Shown in pieces: positions 3,569 to 27,325 of a stretch of DNA of 31,725 nucleotides. Within the stretch, counting starts at the first letter, position 1. Each line of letters begins with the position of its first letter. The stretch comes from a virus. Both the position numbers and the translations under genes were made by a program. Below the pieces are notes generated by a model. The model was not told the origin of the DNA. It worked only from the letters and a program-made list of their open reading frames with translations, and did not search any database. Location of the stretch: positions 1-31,725 of the IMG/VR virus record IMGVR_UViG_3300010157_000173; one strand, written 5' to 3'.

Positions 3569-4195
3569 ATGATAATTTTAAATGGTAAACATTATGTTTA
3601 TAGACACATTAGGTTAGATAAATATGAACCTTTTTATATAGGTATTGGTACTAAAGATTCTATTAAAAAATGGAAGAGTAATTATAAAAGATCTTATGAT
3701 AAAAAATATAGAAATGATTTATGGAAAAAGATTTATAATAAAACTTCTTACAAAATAGAAATTTTAATTGAATCAAATGATTATGAGTTTATAAAAGAAA
3801 AGGAAAAATATTTTATTAAATTATATGGGAGAAAGGATTTAGGAACAGGTACTCTCTGTAACCTTACAGATGGTGGAGAAGGGGGTTTAAACTGTCTTAA
3901 AACAGAAGAAATCAAACTAAAAATTAGTAACAAATTGAAAGGTAGAAAAGTTCCTATAGAAACTTTAATGAAAAGGGTTAAAGGGATAAAGAAAAATAAA
4001 GATTCACCAGGTTATAAAAGATTAAAAGATAAGTTATCTAAAAAAGTAATTCAATTAGATAAAAATTTTAATCCTATTAAAGAATGGGATAGTATTACTG
4101 AAGCAGGAAAAAATGGTTTCCAAATTAGTAAAATTAGTCTTTGTTGTAATAATAAAAGACCTTTTCACAAAGGATACATATGGAAATTTAAATAA
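3569..4195 (+). CDS. GIY-YIG homing endonuclease with NUMOD3 and NUMOD1 modules
   Basis: Free-standing homing endonuclease, a selfish gene that cuts cognate DNA near its insertion point. The GIY-YIG core is at the N-terminus: YVYRHIR (residues 9-15) and PFYIGIGT (21-28), with downstream Arg/Lys and a Glu-containing helix near 60-75. A NUMOD3-like DNA-binding repeat is near 118-138 (KISNKLKGRKVP), and a NUMOD1-like module fills about 155-208, with the pattern V-I-Q-L-D then SITEAG and the ending GYIWKF. It sits between the Sak4-like gene and the SSB candidate, splitting what is normally an adjacent pair, behind its own structured leader. Family call is strong; its target site is unknown, though the flanking genes are obvious candidates. 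Confidence 0.9.
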   Translation: MIILNGKHYVYRHIRLDKYEPFYIGIGTKDSIKKWKSNYKRSYDKKYRNDLWKKIYNKTSYKIEILIESNDYEFIKEKEKYFIKLYGRKDLGTGTLCNLTDGGEGGLNCLKTEEIKLKISNKLKGRKVPIETLMKRVKGIKKNKDSPGYKRLKDKLSKKVIQLDKNFNPIKEWDSITEAGKNGFQISKISLCCNNKRPFHKGYIWKFK

Positions 4196-6274: not shown

Positions 6275-6987
6275 AATTAGATTTAGACAAATTTCAACCT
6301 TTAATGGGAGAATGGTGGGGTAGGGTTAAATACATTTTTGAAAAACCAGAAATGTATGAATTATACCAAGAAATGAAAGAAATGTCAGCAAAAGGTATAA
6401 AAATAACTCCTAAATCTTCTGATTTATGGAAATTTTTAAAAGAATGTCCACCTAATGAGCTAAAGTTAGTTATTATTGGTTTTGATAGTTACCCTGGAAT
6501 ATATGCTAACGGTGATTTTCATGCTGATGGTATAGCTTTTAGTAATAGTTATAGTCCTGATAAAAAATGTCAACCATCCCTAGAATATTTTTGGGATGGA
6601 TTATCTGAAGATTTAGGGATTCAATTAGAACATAAAAATGATTTAACCTTTTTAGCTAATCAAGGTGTATTATTAGGTAATAGAGCTTTAGCTTGTCAAT
6701 TATATAAAACAGGTTCTTTATTAGGTAAATTTGATTTCTTTTGGAAAGAGTTTTTAGGTATAATTAGTGGATTTGGAGTTCCAATTATATTGATTGGTAA
6801 AGATGCTCAAGTATTAAAACAGTATTGTAATGAAAAAACTAATGCTGTATTTGAAATTGAACATCCTAGTTATGCAGCAAGAAAAAATCAATTATGGAAT
6901 ACTCAAAAAGTATTTACTAAAGTAGAACAACTATTAAAAGATAATAATAACCAATATATAGATTGGCAAGATGAATTACCATTTTAA
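6271..6987 (+). CDS. ung: Family-1-like uracil-DNA glycosylase with altered water-activating loop
   Basis: Predicted to excise uracil from DNA. Order of motifs follows bacterial Ung: GFDSYPG at 70-76 in place of GQDPYHG, ADGIAFSN at 85-92, VLLGNRAL at 133-140, HPSYAARK at 198-205, and an ending IDWQDELP like the Ung tail. Aligning by eye, catalytic Asp (72), Tyr (74), uracil-stacking Phe (90), uracil-reading Asn (137) and the His of HPS (198) are kept, while Gln63, Pro65 and His67 of E. coli Ung become Phe, Ser and Pro. The protein is near usual length (238 aa). It overlaps the primase by four bases, so it is probably made with the replisome; a dUTPase is encoded at 23721. Activity is likely but specificity may differ. 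Confidence 0.82.
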   Translation: MKLDLDKFQPLMGEWWGRVKYIFEKPEMYELYQEMKEMSAKGIKITPKSSDLWKFLKECPPNELKLVIIGFDSYPGIYANGDFHADGIAFSNSYSPDKKCQPSLEYFWDGLSEDLGIQLEHKNDLTFLANQGVLLGNRALACQLYKTGSLLGKFDFFWKEFLGIISGFGVPIILIGKDAQVLKQYCNEKTNAVFEIEHPSYAARKNQLWNTQKVFTKVEQLLKDNNNQYIDWQDELPF

Positions 6988-6999
6988 AATTAAAAGAAT

Positions 7000-7281
7000 A
7001 TGAGCAAATCACAAGAAACTTATTTACAATTAAAAGATAATGTAGTAATTAAAGTAAAATTCACATATTATCCTGCTGAAAAAGGTATAAGAGATTATTT
7101 AGGTTTTCAAGAAGAACCTGATGTAGATGAATATTATACTATAGAAGATATACAACAAGTACAAGGTACTTTATTAGAATTTTTTGATTGGCTTAATAAT
7201 AAAGCTGAATTAGAAAATTGTAAATTAAATTTATACGAAATATTAGAAAATCAAATTAAAAGATGTGCAGAAAATCAATAA
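7000..7281 (+). CDS. Conserved-looking hypothetical protein, 93 aa
   Basis: Acidic protein with a beta-rich N-terminus (V-I-K-V-K-F-x-Y near 15-23), a central E-P-D-V-D-E-Y-Y block, and a C-terminal amphipathic helix ending in Cys. Similar small proteins with an 'EPD' block and an I-L-E-x-Q-I helix are common in phages of Bacteroidota, but I know of no function. Its last 19 bases overlap the next gene in another frame. Confidence 0.65.
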   Translation: MSKSQETYLQLKDNVVIKVKFTYYPAEKGIRDYLGFQEEPDVDEYYTIEDIQQVQGTLLEFFDWLNNKAELENCKLNLYEILENQIKRCAENQ

Positions 7282-7577
7282 GACCAGTAATAGATGCTTT
7301 TTTGTTAGGGAAAGCTAAAAAAATAACAAATACAGAATCAACAGGGGATAAATTATTTCTTTTTGGTAATTGTATAGCTAAATGGGTAAATATGGAAATA
7401 TGGATTTCTAATGGTAACTATCCTTTATCAGCTACTACAAAAGATAGGTTAAATGGATTAGGAGCCCATATTACTACTAAAAAAAGTATACATTATCTTA
7501 ATGGTATAGAATGGGATGGCTCATGGATAAACATTAATCACAAACCAGAAATTAAACAAGAAAAAACATTATTTTAA
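7263..7577 (+). CDS. Conserved phage hypothetical protein, 104 aa
   Basis: Contains the run N-T-x-S-T-G, L-F-L-F-G-N, I-W-I-S-N-G, then T-T-K-D-R-L-N-G-L and Y-L-N-G-I-E-W-D-G-S-W-I, an arrangement I associate with a widespread phage hypothetical family of unknown function. The regular beta-turn rich pattern suggests a small beta-sandwich. The start overlaps the preceding gene by 19 bases; there is no later in-frame Met before the conserved block. It ends two bases before the RIIA-like gene and carries a copy of the AATTAAACAA word at 7550-7559 near its end. Confidence 0.7.
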   Translation: MCRKSIRPVIDAFLLGKAKKITNTESTGDKLFLFGNCIAKWVNMEIWISNGNYPLSATTKDRLNGLGAHITTKKSIHYLNGIEWDGSWININHKPEIKQEKTLF

Positions 7578-24355: not shown

Positions 24356-27325
24356 ATGAATATTAAAAAGTTAAGTTTAGACAAAGAAATTTTATCTGAA
24401 GTGACTGTTTTTATGAAATATTCAAAGTATTTACCTGAACTAAACAGGAGAGAAACCTGGGAAGAATTAGTTACAAGAAATATGGAGATGCACATAAAAA
24501 AGTATCCTTTTTTAAAAAAAGAGATTAAAGAAAACTATAAACTTGTTTATAACAAGAAAGTTTTACCTTCTATGAGAAGTATGCAATTTGCAGGTAAATC
24601 AATAGAAGTTAGTCCTAATAGAATTTTTAATTGTGCTTATGCTCCTATAGATGATATTAGAGTATTTGGTGAAATTATGTTTTTATTATTAGGTGGTACT
24701 GGTGTAGGATATTCTGTACAAAAACATCATATTGAAAAATTACCTGAAATTAAAAAACCCAATATTAAAAGAAAGAAAAGATTTTTAATTGCTGATAGTA
24801 TTGAAGGATGGAGTGATGCTGTAAAAATGTTAATAAAAACATATTTTACAGGTACAAGTACTTTAGAATTTGATTTTAGTGATATTAGACCTAAAGGTAG
24901 CAGATTAGTAACAAGTGGTGGTAAAGCTCCAGGACCTCAACCTTTAAAAGAATGTTTAATTCATATACAAGGTATTTTAGATAAAAAAGATGATGGGGAT
25001 AAATTAACTCCATTAGAAGTTCACGATATTGTTTGTTTTATTGCTGATGCAGTATTAGCTGGTGGTATTAGAAGAGCTGCATTAATAAGTTTATTTAGTG
25101 CTGATGATGATGAAATGATTGCTTGTAAAACAGGTAATTGGTGGGAAACTAATCCACAAAGAGGAAGAAGTAATAATTCTGCTGTATTATTAAGACATAA
25201 AATTACAAAAGACTTTTTCATGGATTTATGGAAAAGAGTAGAATTAAGTAATGCTGGTGAACCTGGTATTTATTTAACTAATGATAAAGATTGGGGAACA
25301 AATCCATCATTAAGGGCTGGAACTAAAGTTCTAACAACAGAAGGTATCTTCCCAATTGAAGAATTACAAGATAAAACCTTCAAAGTTAAAAATTTAAATA
25401 GTGAAATATCTGATGCTAAATGTTGGTTGTCAGGTAAAAATCAACAACTTGTTAAGTTAACACTTGAAGATGGAACTGAATATTTTGCAACTAAAGAACA
25501 TGAGTGGCCTGTTTGGAATGGTGAAAAATACGTTAAAGTTAAAACACCAGAATTAACAAACGGTGATAAATTACCAATAATTAGAGAAAATAAATTATTT
25601 GATGGTCATTTAGGCGTGTATGATGATGGGTTCTTATGTGGATGGATTATTGGTGATGGTTGGGTTTCAGATAGAAAAGAATATTCAGAATATGGTATGA
25701 TAGTATCAGATACTGACGATGAATCTAATATTTCCGATAAATTAATAAAAACATTAAAACTAAATGTTCCAGGTTTTAATGGTGAATTTAAACGTAGATA
25801 TAAGAAAGGATACCAAGATATTGGGGAGGAAATGCAAATATCACATATTGATACACACACCAAAGAAATATCTATAAATAATAAAAGTGTTGATGAATAT
25901 ATTAAAAGTTTTGGTGTTGTTAATAAACACGTTGGTTTACCTAAATCGGTATGGGTTAATGGGTCTGAGGATTTTAGAAAGGGGTTGATTGATGGTTTAT
26001 TTAGTTCTGATGGTAATATTAGTAAGACACAAAAAAGAATAACGTATACATCATCCCACAAACAGCTTATAGATGATTTATCTGAATTGTTAGGGTTTTA
26101 CGGTATAAAATCTAAAATAAAGGTGGGTAAATCAGTATTAGATGGTTACGATAAAGAATTTACCCGATATGATTTAAGGATATGTGAAACAAACTCCATT
26201 AAACATTTTATATCATTGTTTAATTTAACAAATAAGTATAAACAAGATATATTAGATTCTTATGTGTTTAGATATAATATACACGATGATAAACAAATAA
26301 AAATTGAATCCGTTGAATTAACGGATATTTATGAGGATGTTTGGGATATATCAGTTTTTGACACCACACATTGTTTTCAAATATCTAAAGTAATAACAGG
26401 AAATTGTTGCGAAATTGCTTTAAGACCCTTCCAATTCTGTAATTTATGTGAAGTAAATGTAAGTGATATTCAAAGTCAAGAAGACTTAAACAACAGAGTA
26501 AAAGCTGCTGCATTTATTGGTACATTACAAGCTGGTTATACAGATTTTCATTATTTAAGAGATATTTGGAAAAAAACTACAGAAAAAGATGCTTTAATAG
26601 GGGTTTCTATGACAGGTATTGGTAGCGGTGAAATATTAAAATTCAATATGAAAGAAGCTACTAAAGTTGTAAAAGAAGAAAATGAAAGAGTTGCTAGTTT
26701 AATTGGTATTAATAAAGCTGCAAGAACTACAACAGTTAAACCTGCTGGTACTACTTCTTTAACTTTAGGAACTTCAAGTGGTATTCATGCGTGGCATAAT
26801 CATTATTATATTAGAAGAATTAGAGTGGGTAAAAATGAAGCTATATATACTTATCTTTTAATTAATCACCCTGAATTATTAGAAGATGATTATTTTAGAC
26901 CACATGATACAGCTATTATTTCTGTCCCACAAAAAGCACCTGATAATGCTATTATAAGAACTGAATCTCCTTTGGATTTATTAGAAAGAGTTAAAAAAGT
27001 ACATTTAGAATGGATTAAACCAGGTCATAGATCAGGTAGTAATTCCCATAATGTATCTGCTACTATCTCTATTAAACCTGAAGAATGGATTACGATTGGT
27101 AGCTGGATGTGGGAAAATAAAGAACATTATAATGGTTTATCTGTTTTACCTTATGACAATGGTAGTTATATACAAGCTCCTTTTGAAGATTGTACAAAAG
27201 AAAAATATGAAGAAATGATAAAACATTTACATAATATTGATTTATCTCAAGTAGTAGAAATGGATGATGCTACAGATCAAAAAGGAGAACTAGCATGTAG
27301 TTCTTCTGGATGTGAAGTGAAATAA
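24356..27325 (+). CDS. nrdJ: Class II (adenosylcobalamin-dependent) ribonucleotide reductase with an in-frame intein
   Basis: Converts ribonucleotides to deoxyribonucleotides. The precursor is 989 aa; removing residues 318-683 leaves 623 aa, resembling monomeric RTPR (739 aa in Lactobacillus leichmannii). F-N-C-A-Y-A-P (Cys93) matches the first active-site Cys; G-G-T-G-V-G-Y follows near 113-119. Across the intein, N-P is rejoined to C-C-E-I-A-L-R-P, giving the thiyl-radical Cys (684), Glu (686), and Cys695 eleven residues further, the same spacing as C408/C419 of RTPR. The tail C-S-S-S-G-C (981-986) fits the C-terminal redox pair. A phage RNR of this class does not need a separate small subunit but depends on host cobalamin. 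It ends at a strong terminator. Confidence 0.92.
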   Translation: MNIKKLSLDKEILSEVTVFMKYSKYLPELNRRETWEELVTRNMEMHIKKYPFLKKEIKENYKLVYNKKVLPSMRSMQFAGKSIEVSPNRIFNCAYAPIDDIRVFGEIMFLLLGGTGVGYSVQKHHIEKLPEIKKPNIKRKKRFLIADSIEGWSDAVKMLIKTYFTGTSTLEFDFSDIRPKGSRLVTSGGKAPGPQPLKECLIHIQGILDKKDDGDKLTPLEVHDIVCFIADAVLAGGIRRAALISLFSADDDEMIACKTGNWWETNPQRGRSNNSAVLLRHKITKDFFMDLWKRVELSNAGEPGIYLTNDKDWGTNPSLRAGTKVLTTEGIFPIEELQDKTFKVKNLNSEISDAKCWLSGKNQQLVKLTLEDGTEYFATKEHEWPVWNGEKYVKVKTPELTNGDKLPIIRENKLFDGHLGVYDDGFLCGWIIGDGWVSDRKEYSEYGMIVSDTDDESNISDKLIKTLKLNVPGFNGEFKRRYKKGYQDIGEEMQISHIDTHTKEISINNKSVDEYIKSFGVVNKHVGLPKSVWVNGSEDFRKGLIDGLFSSDGNISKTQKRITYTSSHKQLIDDLSELLGFYGIKSKIKVGKSVLDGYDKEFTRYDLRICETNSIKHFISLFNLTNKYKQDILDSYVFRYNIHDDKQIKIESVELTDIYEDVWDISVFDTTHCFQISKVITGNCCEIALRPFQFCNLCEVNVSDIQSQEDLNNRVKAAAFIGTLQAGYTDFHYLRDIWKKTTEKDALIGVSMTGIGSGEILKFNMKEATKVVKEENERVASLIGINKAARTTTVKPAGTTSLTLGTSSGIHAWHNHYYIRRIRVGKNEAIYTYLLINHPELLEDDYFRPHDTAIISVPQKAPDNAIIRTESPLDLLERVKKVHLEWIKPGHRSGSNSHNVSATISIKPEEWITIGSWMWENKEHYNGLSVLPYDNGSYIQAPFEDCTKEKYEEMIKHLHNIDLSQVVEMDDATDQKGELACSSSGCEVK
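25307..26404 (+). mobile_element. LAGLIDADG intein in the ribonucleotide reductase
   Basis: 366-residue intein from Ser318 to Asn683 of the precursor. Block A reads S-L-R-A-G-T-K-V-L-T, block B has G-T-E-Y-F-A-T-K-E-H-E-W (T-x-x-H), two LAGLIDADG motifs are L-C-G-W-I-I-G-D-G-W (near residue 428) and G-L-I-D-G-L-F-S-S-D-G (near 543), and block F/G ends V-F-D-T-T-H-C-F-Q-I then V-I-T-G-N with C-extein Cys684 as +1. The first residue is Ser and the penultimate is Gly instead of His, both less common. The central part is visibly richer in CpG than the flanking exteins. Splicing activity and homing activity are predicted, not shown. Confidence 0.92.

What the first reader, a model, noticed from the sequence alone, without database searches (positions are those of the whole stretch)
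25307..26404. Intein inserted exactly before the thiyl-radical cysteine of a phage class II RNR
Excision joins N-P (residues 316-317) to C-C-E-I, restoring the catalytic N-P-C-x-E-I motif. The +1 splicing nucleophile (Cys684) is therefore also the residue that should carry the substrate-activating thiyl radical, so the unspliced enzyme must be dead and splicing gates dNTP synthesis. In addition the intein starts with Ser rather than Cys and has Gly instead of His before its terminal Asn, so its splicing chemistry may be slow or conditional.
Basis: partly seen in the sequence, partly recalled or inferred. Interest (0 to 1): 0.75.

Follow-up and report, generated by a model that had tools for sequence, protein, structure and literature searches.

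The report
Intein at phage RNR's radical cysteine
A self-splicing, mobile protein insert (an intein) interrupts a phage's DNA-building-block enzyme exactly at the cysteine that carries its catalytic radical; the insert belongs to a family that uses only this codon in distantly related enzymes, and its splice site contains a proline that engineered inteins tolerate badly.

Summary
ORF 24356-27325 (989 aa) is a monomeric class II ribonucleotide reductase whose residue 684 aligns with the thiyl-radical Cys408 of L. leichmannii RTPR. A 366-aa LAGLIDADG intein (25307-26404) sits exactly before it. 62 intein-less relatives read GTNPCCEIALR. The same intein family occupies the same NP|C codon in 47 further loci, 42 with both boundaries, and was found nowhere else. 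Hosts include monomeric and dimeric class II RNRs, mostly viral, plus two bacterial bins. The class 1 splicing residues are conserved, the intein is under purifying selection (omega about 0.12) and the fold is confirmed.

Unspliced enzyme should be inactive. But Ser1 and the penultimate Gly are family traits, not decay, and nothing shows that splicing is conditional. Other inteins use the same codon in Chloroflexota chromosomes, Thermus and Nodularia phages and class I phage NrdA, so the site is a recurrent target. Best reading: an ordinary mobile intein with unusual splice-junction chemistry. Splicing itself is untested.

The parts
24356..27325 (+). Gene for a monomeric class II (adenosylcobalamin-dependent) ribonucleoside-triphosphate reductase precursor, 989 aa
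   Evidence: TIGR02505 RTPR 253.9 bits, split by the intein and below the 340 cut-off; RTPR 1l1l by sequence and by predicted fold, Z 33.2 over 565 residues
24356..25306 (+). N-extein, residues 1-317, ends ...GTNP
   Evidence: aligned with intein-less relatives
25304..25306 (+). Pro at -1 of the splice site
   Evidence: invariant in the 27-sequence alignment A3
25307..26404 (+). Intein, 366 aa (residues 318-683)
   Evidence: 47 further loci at the same codon
25307..25309 (+). Ser1, intein N-terminal nucleophile
   Evidence: invariant in A2 and A3
25490..25507 (+). Block B TKEHEW: Thr B:7 (T62), His B:10 (H65), Trp B:12 (W67)
   Evidence: H65 and W67 invariant, T62 in at least 90%; block nomenclature from PMC4031507
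25625..25660 (+). LAGLIDADG motif 1, DGFLCGWIIGDG (intein residues 107-118)
   Evidence: G116, D117 and G118 invariant
25973..26014 (+). LAGLIDADG motif 2, FRKGLIDGLFSSDG (intein residues 223-236)
   Evidence: PF14528 at intein residues 223-303; D235 in at least 90% of the family
26345..26347 (+). Asp F:4 (intein D347)
   Evidence: invariant
26369..26371 (+). His F:13 (intein H355)
   Evidence: invariant
26396..26404 (+). Thr G:5, Gly G:6, Asn G:7 at the intein C-terminus (TGN)
   Evidence: T and N invariant, G in at least 90%
26405..27322 (+). C-extein, residues 684-989, begins CCEIALRPFQFCNLCE
26405..26407 (+). Cys684: +1 splicing nucleophile and equivalent of RTPR radical Cys408
   Evidence: invariant in A4
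26411..26413 (+). Glu686, equivalent of RTPR Glu410
   Evidence: invariant in A4
26438..26440 (+). Cys695, equivalent of redox Cys419
   Evidence: invariant in A4
24632..24634 (+). Cys93, equivalent of redox Cys119
   Evidence: invariant in A4
27296..27313 (+). C-terminal CSSSGC cysteine pair (C981, C986), RTPR-like reductant relay
   Evidence: position and conservation; role from knowledge of RTPR

Best explanation
The insert is a mobile class 1-type intein with a LAGLIDADG homing endonuclease. It has specialised on the codon of the radical cysteine in class II RNR genes because that is among the most conserved DNA and protein stretches available and supplies a Cys at +1. After translation the intein folds, Ser1 attacks the Pro317-Ser318 bond, the acyl group passes to Cys684, Asn683 cyclises, and the exteins join to restore N-P-C-C-E-I. 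The same thiol then serves as the radical carrier. Shown here: position, boundaries, conserved splicing residues, predicted fold, selection and site fidelity. Inferred: the order of chemical steps, that splicing is constitutive and complete, that the endonuclease still cuts, and that the precursor is inactive.
For: C684 = Cys408. All class 1 catalytic positions filled and conserved across 12-27 relatives at 31-87% identity (PMC4031507). Purifying selection: dN/dS 0.08-0.14 in five pairs, 0.119 against the nearest relative. Five RNR cysteines plus N316 and E686 kept, so the product is expected to be a working enzyme. Intein silent divergence from the nearest relative (dS 0.67) is lower than that of the flanking exteins (0.80-1.04), and intein and RNR trees disagree at supported nodes (L128, L103/L109), as expected of homing. 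Fold.
Against: No protein data. Pro at -1 is reported to disrupt the first acyl shift (PMC13123727). PF14890 and TIGR01445 scores lie just under their cut-offs. The intein and RNR trees agree in outline (the core group is not rejected, p-AU 0.43), so transfer is not frequent at every level. No raised identity next to the insertion, as co-conversion might leave.
Confidence: 0.72

Rival explanations
1. Variant chemistry: because the -1 residue is Pro, the first N-O acyl shift is bypassed and Cys684 attacks the Pro317-Ser318 bond directly, as in class 2 inteins; Ser1 is then structural.
For: -1 Pro invariant and stated to block the first step. Penultimate His is absent, as in class 2 inteins, which have Ser there; the residues class 2 needs (Thr B:7, His B:10, Asp F:4) are present.
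Against: Ser1 is strictly conserved, and class 2 inteins carry Ala1. Relatives at the same codon keep Cys1 with -1 Pro, which suggests that the first nucleophile is used.
Confidence: 0.12
2. Regulated splicing: excision is slow or depends on redox state, temperature or host state, so the intein works as a post-translational switch for phage dNTP synthesis.
For: Position at an essential residue; Pro-1, Ser1 and Gly G:6 may lower the rate. Conditional inteins exist (for example mycobacterial DnaB, PMC6195587, abstract), and the A. aeolicus R2 intein alters metal loading of the mature enzyme (PMC8772380).
Against: The traits are family-wide; most close relatives lack the intein (66 of 101 fetched loci had one uninterrupted RNR match and no intein match), so a switch is not needed. 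No direct evidence.
Confidence: 0.1
3. Splicing-dead insert: the intein has decayed and the phage RNR is a pseudogene.
For: Unusual splice-site residues; no protein evidence.
Against: Open frame, omega about 0.12, invariant catalytic residues, intact RNR active site.
Confidence: 0.03

Closest known systems
Chromosomal Cys1/His-Asn inteins in dimeric class II NrdJ of Chloroflexota (found here; probably one of the rir1 alleles of the literature, which one not established)
   Same: Same codon (NP|C), -1 Pro, +1 radical Cys, LAGLIDADG, detectable homology (E 1e-20 to 3e-34)
   Different: Cys1 and VHN at the C-terminus instead of Ser1 and TGN; no Trp at B:12
NrdJ-1 split intein (marine metagenome; PDB 8ubs)
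   Same: Class II RNR, same NPC motif (native NPC/SEI flanks, PMC13123727); splicing fold (Z 16.7)
   Different: Inserted one codon later, after the radical Cys; split, Cys1, Ser+1; fast splicing proven
PI-PfuI, P. furiosus intein endonuclease (PDB 1dq3)
   Same: Best structural match over the whole intein (Z 29.2, 329 residues); best PDB sequence match, in the endonuclease part
   Different: 19% identity over the structural match; an RNR intein by my recollection, its insertion site not checked
Inteins in Thermus phages G20c and TSP4 and Nodularia phage kac65v151
   Same: Same NP|C codon in phage class II RNR; G20c and Nodularia cases already noted as inteins by others (PMC6459318; record annotation)
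   Different: Cys1; weak or no sequence similarity (22% for G20c)
Class I phage NrdA inteins (Vibrio, Salicola, Pseudoalteromonas phages)
   Same: Inserted before the class I radical Cys: SNL|C...LTGQ|CxEI
   Different: Cys1, C-terminal Gln, -1 Leu, class I enzyme
A. aeolicus NrdB intein
   Same: LAGLIDADG intein in an RNR active site, splicing shown (PMC8772380)
   Different: Radical-generating subunit, between iron ligands

Membership tests
Inteins (class 1) | Cys1 or Ser1 nucleophile | tested here: met
   Ser1, invariant
Inteins (class 1) | Thr B:7, His B:10, Asp F:4, C-terminal Asn, Cys/Ser/Thr at +1 | tested here: met
   T62, H65, D347, N366, C+1
Inteins (class 1) | Penultimate His G:6 (usual, not required; about 5% of functional inteins differ, PMC4031507) | tested here: not met
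   Gly in the window and nearly all relatives
Inteins (class 1) | HINT splicing fold | tested here: met
   model pLDDT 88; matches to PI-PfuI, VMA, DnaB, gp41-1, NrdJ-1 inteins
Inteins (class 1) | Autocatalytic excision with ligation of exteins | not testable with these tools
   needs expression
Inteins (class 2) | Ala1 and Ser G:6 (KlbA orthologues) | tested here: not met
   Ser1, Gly G:6 (definition)
Inteins (class 3) | Cys F:4 as first nucleophile (W-C-T set) | tested here: not met
   Asp at F:4; Trp B:12 and Thr G:5 are present
LAGLIDADG homing endonuclease | Domain above cut-off and two motifs with acidic residues | tested here: met
   PF14528 58.2 bits (cut-off 22.5); D117 invariant, D235 in at least 90%
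LAGLIDADG homing endonuclease | Cuts the intein-less allele | not testable with these tools
   needs a cleavage assay
Monomeric class II RNR (RTPR, NrdJm) | Curated TIGR02505 score | tested here: inconclusive
   253.9 bits, cut-off 340.05; the precursor is split by the intein
Monomeric class II RNR (RTPR, NrdJm) | Cys119, Cys408, Cys419, Asn406, Glu410 and C-terminal Cys pair | tested here: met
   C93, C684, C695, N316, E686, C981, C986
Monomeric class II RNR (RTPR, NrdJm) | B12-type insertion domain and fold | tested here: met
   PF21995 33.9 bits over cut-off 27; 1l1l Z 33.2
NrdJ-1 insertion site (after the radical Cys) | NPC | intein | [S/C]EI | tested here: not met
   window is NP | intein | CCEI; a relative, L036, has the NrdJ-1 type site
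rir1 allele nomenclature | Identity with a named rir1 site | not tested
   site sequences of rir1-b, -g, -k, -l, -m are not given in the text read (PMC4071816)

The most novel reading that the evidence does not exclude
A phage-centred intein clade fixed to the RNR radical cysteine has evolved a splicing pathway adapted to an obligate Pro at -1 (with Ser1, Trp B:12 and TGN), possibly with a modified first step, and its rate controls when the phage RNR becomes active.
Probability: 0.12. Interest if true: 0.75.

Novelty: new variant of a known kind. Interest (0 to 1): 0.48.

Why it matters
The +1 thiol of splicing and the radical-carrying thiol of catalysis are one atom, so splicing and catalysis share a residue that neither can lose. 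The site is invaded by several intein groups in class I and II RNRs, and relatives have further inteins before the two redox cysteines (Cys119 and Cys419 equivalents). This makes RNR a good test of why inteins choose catalytic residues. A natural family with Pro at -1 in every member would give intein engineers a starting point for Pro-containing junctions, which are said to fail with common inteins.

Tried and rejected
Chance or artefact: rejected (47 further loci, 42 with both boundaries; not dereplicated, L008-L011 are near copies). Class 3 intein: rejected, Asp not Cys at F:4. Class 2: Ala1 absent. Decay: omega 0.12. Co-conversion signal beside the site: none seen. Wholesale conflict of intein and RNR trees: rejected, AU p 0.43 for the core group; only single nodes conflict. 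Weak hits L130-L133 (23-34%) lie in other contexts with Cys1 and were not pursued. Identification of the Pyrococcus and named rir1 sites failed: papers not held or silent, and the PRK08332 control search was uninformative. The literature search found no statement of an intein placed before the RNR radical Cys, but the held library is partial (10 searches).

Full report
OBSERVATION. The window holds one 989-aa ORF, 24356-27325 (+), with no stop. Residues 318-683 (nt 25307-26404) form a 366-aa insert; the flanks read GTNP | SLRAGTKVLTTEG...HCFQISKVITGN | CCEIALRPFQFCNLCE. The coordinates in the finding are exact.

HOST ENZYME. Sequence search of the PDB gives a single entry, L. leichmannii RTPR (1l1l). 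Query 681-684 pairs with RTPR 405-408, so C684 is Cys408, C695 is Cys419 and C93 is Cys119. NCBIfam's best hit is TIGR02505 RTPR (253.9 bits, below the curated 340; the protein is split by the insert). In a 20-sequence alignment C93, N316, C684, E686, C695 and C981 are invariant and C986 nearly so. That Cys408 carries the thiyl radical and Cys119/Cys419 the reducing equivalents is established RTPR biochemistry, not tested here.

EMPTY SITE. Among loci fetched from viral contigs, 62 uninterrupted relatives read GTNPCCEIALR and four more differ by one residue in that stretch. Joining the window's flanking codons gives GGAACAAATCCA-TGTTGCGAAATT, one base from an allele in three intein-less relatives.

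INTEIN ANATOMY. LAGLIDADG_3 matches at 58.2 bits; Intein_splicing at E 5e-8, 33.3 bits against a cut-off of 35.8. AlphaFold2 with 27 sequences and five flanking residues on each side gives pLDDT 88. VIA-align puts PI-PfuI first (Z 29.2, 3.6 A, 329 residues, from its residue 1 to 454), then VMA, DnaB, NrdJ-1 and gp41-1 inteins. A model of the whole precursor (pLDDT 81, pTM 0.59) matches RTPR with both exteins together (Z 33.2, 565 residues, 3.5 A) and PI-PfuI with residues 318-683; confidence falls under 50 at 310-317 and 684-689, the two halves of the active-site loop.

SPLICING RESIDUES. Following the block nomenclature of PMC4031507: Ser1, Thr B:7 (T62), His B:10 (H65), Asp F:4 (D347), His F:13 (H355), Asn G:7 (N366) and Cys+1 are present. 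In 26 aligned inteins S1, H65, W67, D347, H355, T364 and N366 are invariant, T62 and G365 in at least 90%. With flanks included, Asn-2, Pro-1, Cys+1 and Glu+3 are invariant in 27 sequences. Hence Ser1 and Gly G:6 are family traits. About 5% of functional inteins lack His G:6 (PMC4031507). The set is class 1; Trp B:12 and Thr G:5 recall class 3, but F:4 is Asp.

PROLINE AT -1. This was not in the finding. [quoted passage not shown] A title on engineered Ssp DnaX inteins with flanking proline was seen only as a reference. Yet every member here, and the unrelated or distantly related inteins at the same codon, have -1 Pro. Either these inteins cope with it or they use another route; only experiment can tell.

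SELECTION AND MOBILITY. dN/dS is 0.119 for the window intein against L008 and 0.08-0.14 for four other pairs. dS of the intein against L008 is 0.67; of the flanking exteins 1.04 and 0.80. Intein identity stays at 42-52% where the RNR halves have dropped to 22-42% (L115, L119, L124, L125, L134, L135). Trees agree in outline, and the core RNR group is not rejected by the intein data (p-AU 0.43). Supported conflicts exist: L128 has a monomeric RNR but its intein groups with those of dimeric RNRs (98/97), though on a long branch, and the L103 and L109 inteins are sisters (100/100) while the L109 RNR is sister to L012 (99/93). This fits homing on top of descent.

SITE FIDELITY. With the intein alignment, 44 viral loci, two bacterial bins and one phage genome carry the family at NP|C; 42 show both boundaries and five, truncated, show one. 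None was found elsewhere; four weak hits (L130-L133) are other inteins. Hosts score best as RTPR (TIGR02505) or dimeric NrdJ_Z (TIGR02504). L134 (Chloroflexi bin) sits in what looks like a chromosomal setting, beside an SbcD-like phosphoesterase and a monooxygenase (my reading of the ORFs).

OTHER INTEINS AT CATALYTIC CYSTEINES. In a sample of 400 Chloroflexota genomes 27 have a match to the intein model at E 1e-20 or better; the eleven examined besides L146 all sit at NP|C with Cys1, nearly all with VHN. Thermus phages G20c and TSP4 and a Nodularia phage have Cys1 inteins at NP|C. Class I NrdA of Vibrio, Salicola and Pseudoalteromonas phages have SNL|C...LTGQ|CxEI, the class I radical Cys. 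Close relatives of the window RNR also have inteins before the Cys119 equivalent (L030, L025), after Cys408 (L036, the NrdJ-1 type site), before Cys419 (L035) and a split intein at KPSG|T or KPAG|T. The radical cysteine is thus a recurrent target, as expected for elements that need Cys, Ser or Thr at +1 and a conserved DNA site.

MECHANISM. Most likely the intein excises itself soon after folding, yielding N-P-C-C-E-I, and the endonuclease carries it to empty alleles. That the precursor is inactive is inferred from separation of Asn406 from Cys408 and Glu410. Gating of dNTP synthesis has no support beyond plausibility; most close relatives do without the intein. The A. aeolicus R2 precedent (PMC8772380) shows that an RNR active-site intein can splice fully in E. 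coli and even influence metal loading, so an effect on folding or cofactor binding remains possible.

NOVELTY. Inteins in phage RNRs, inteins beside RNR catalytic residues and NrdJ-1 one codon away are known (PMC3653736, PMC8772380, PMC13123727). What seems new, within a partial library, is a large Ser1/Pro-1/Gly G:6 clade confined to the radical cysteine of class II RNRs. I rate this a variant of a known kind.

Noticed in passing
L030:2813-8196 (also L008-L011, L031, L032): One RNR gene with three inteins: before the Cys119 equivalent, before the Cys408 equivalent, and a native split intein at KPSG|T with a free-standing endonuclease-like ORF (6504-7532) between the halves, so RNR would need trans-splicing.
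   Followed up: partly
L027:3968-7454: Same split intein at KPAG|T but without the endonuclease; IntC and C-extein start a second ORF at 6762.
   Followed up: partly
L035:2807-7657: RNR ORF of 1617 aa with three inteins: an Ala1 intein at SMR|A..VTHN|SMQ that looks class 3 (Trp in block B, Cys F:4, Thr G:5), the radical-Cys intein with a degraded second LAGLIDADG motif, and one before the Cys419 equivalent ending in Gln.
   Followed up: partly
L136 (Thermobifida phage P318), L137-L139: Inteins ending LTGQ|C before RNR catalytic cysteines (Cys119 equivalent in P318; class I radical Cys in the others); Gly before the last residue recurs in inteins at RNR cysteines.
   Followed up: partly
L002 (Thermus phage TSP4, 483-3272): RNR annotated as two genes that meet inside the NP|C intein; either a natural split intein or a sequencing error (record is marked UNVERIFIED).
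   Followed up: no
window 3569-4195: HNH homing-endonuclease-like ORF (phrog_314), a second possible mobile element in the same replication region.
   Followed up: no
window 787-30431: T4-like gene set at 24.7% G+C: DnaB-like helicase, primase, RIIA, RIIB, UvsX-like recombinase, dUTPase, ATP-dependent DNA ligase.
   Followed up: partly
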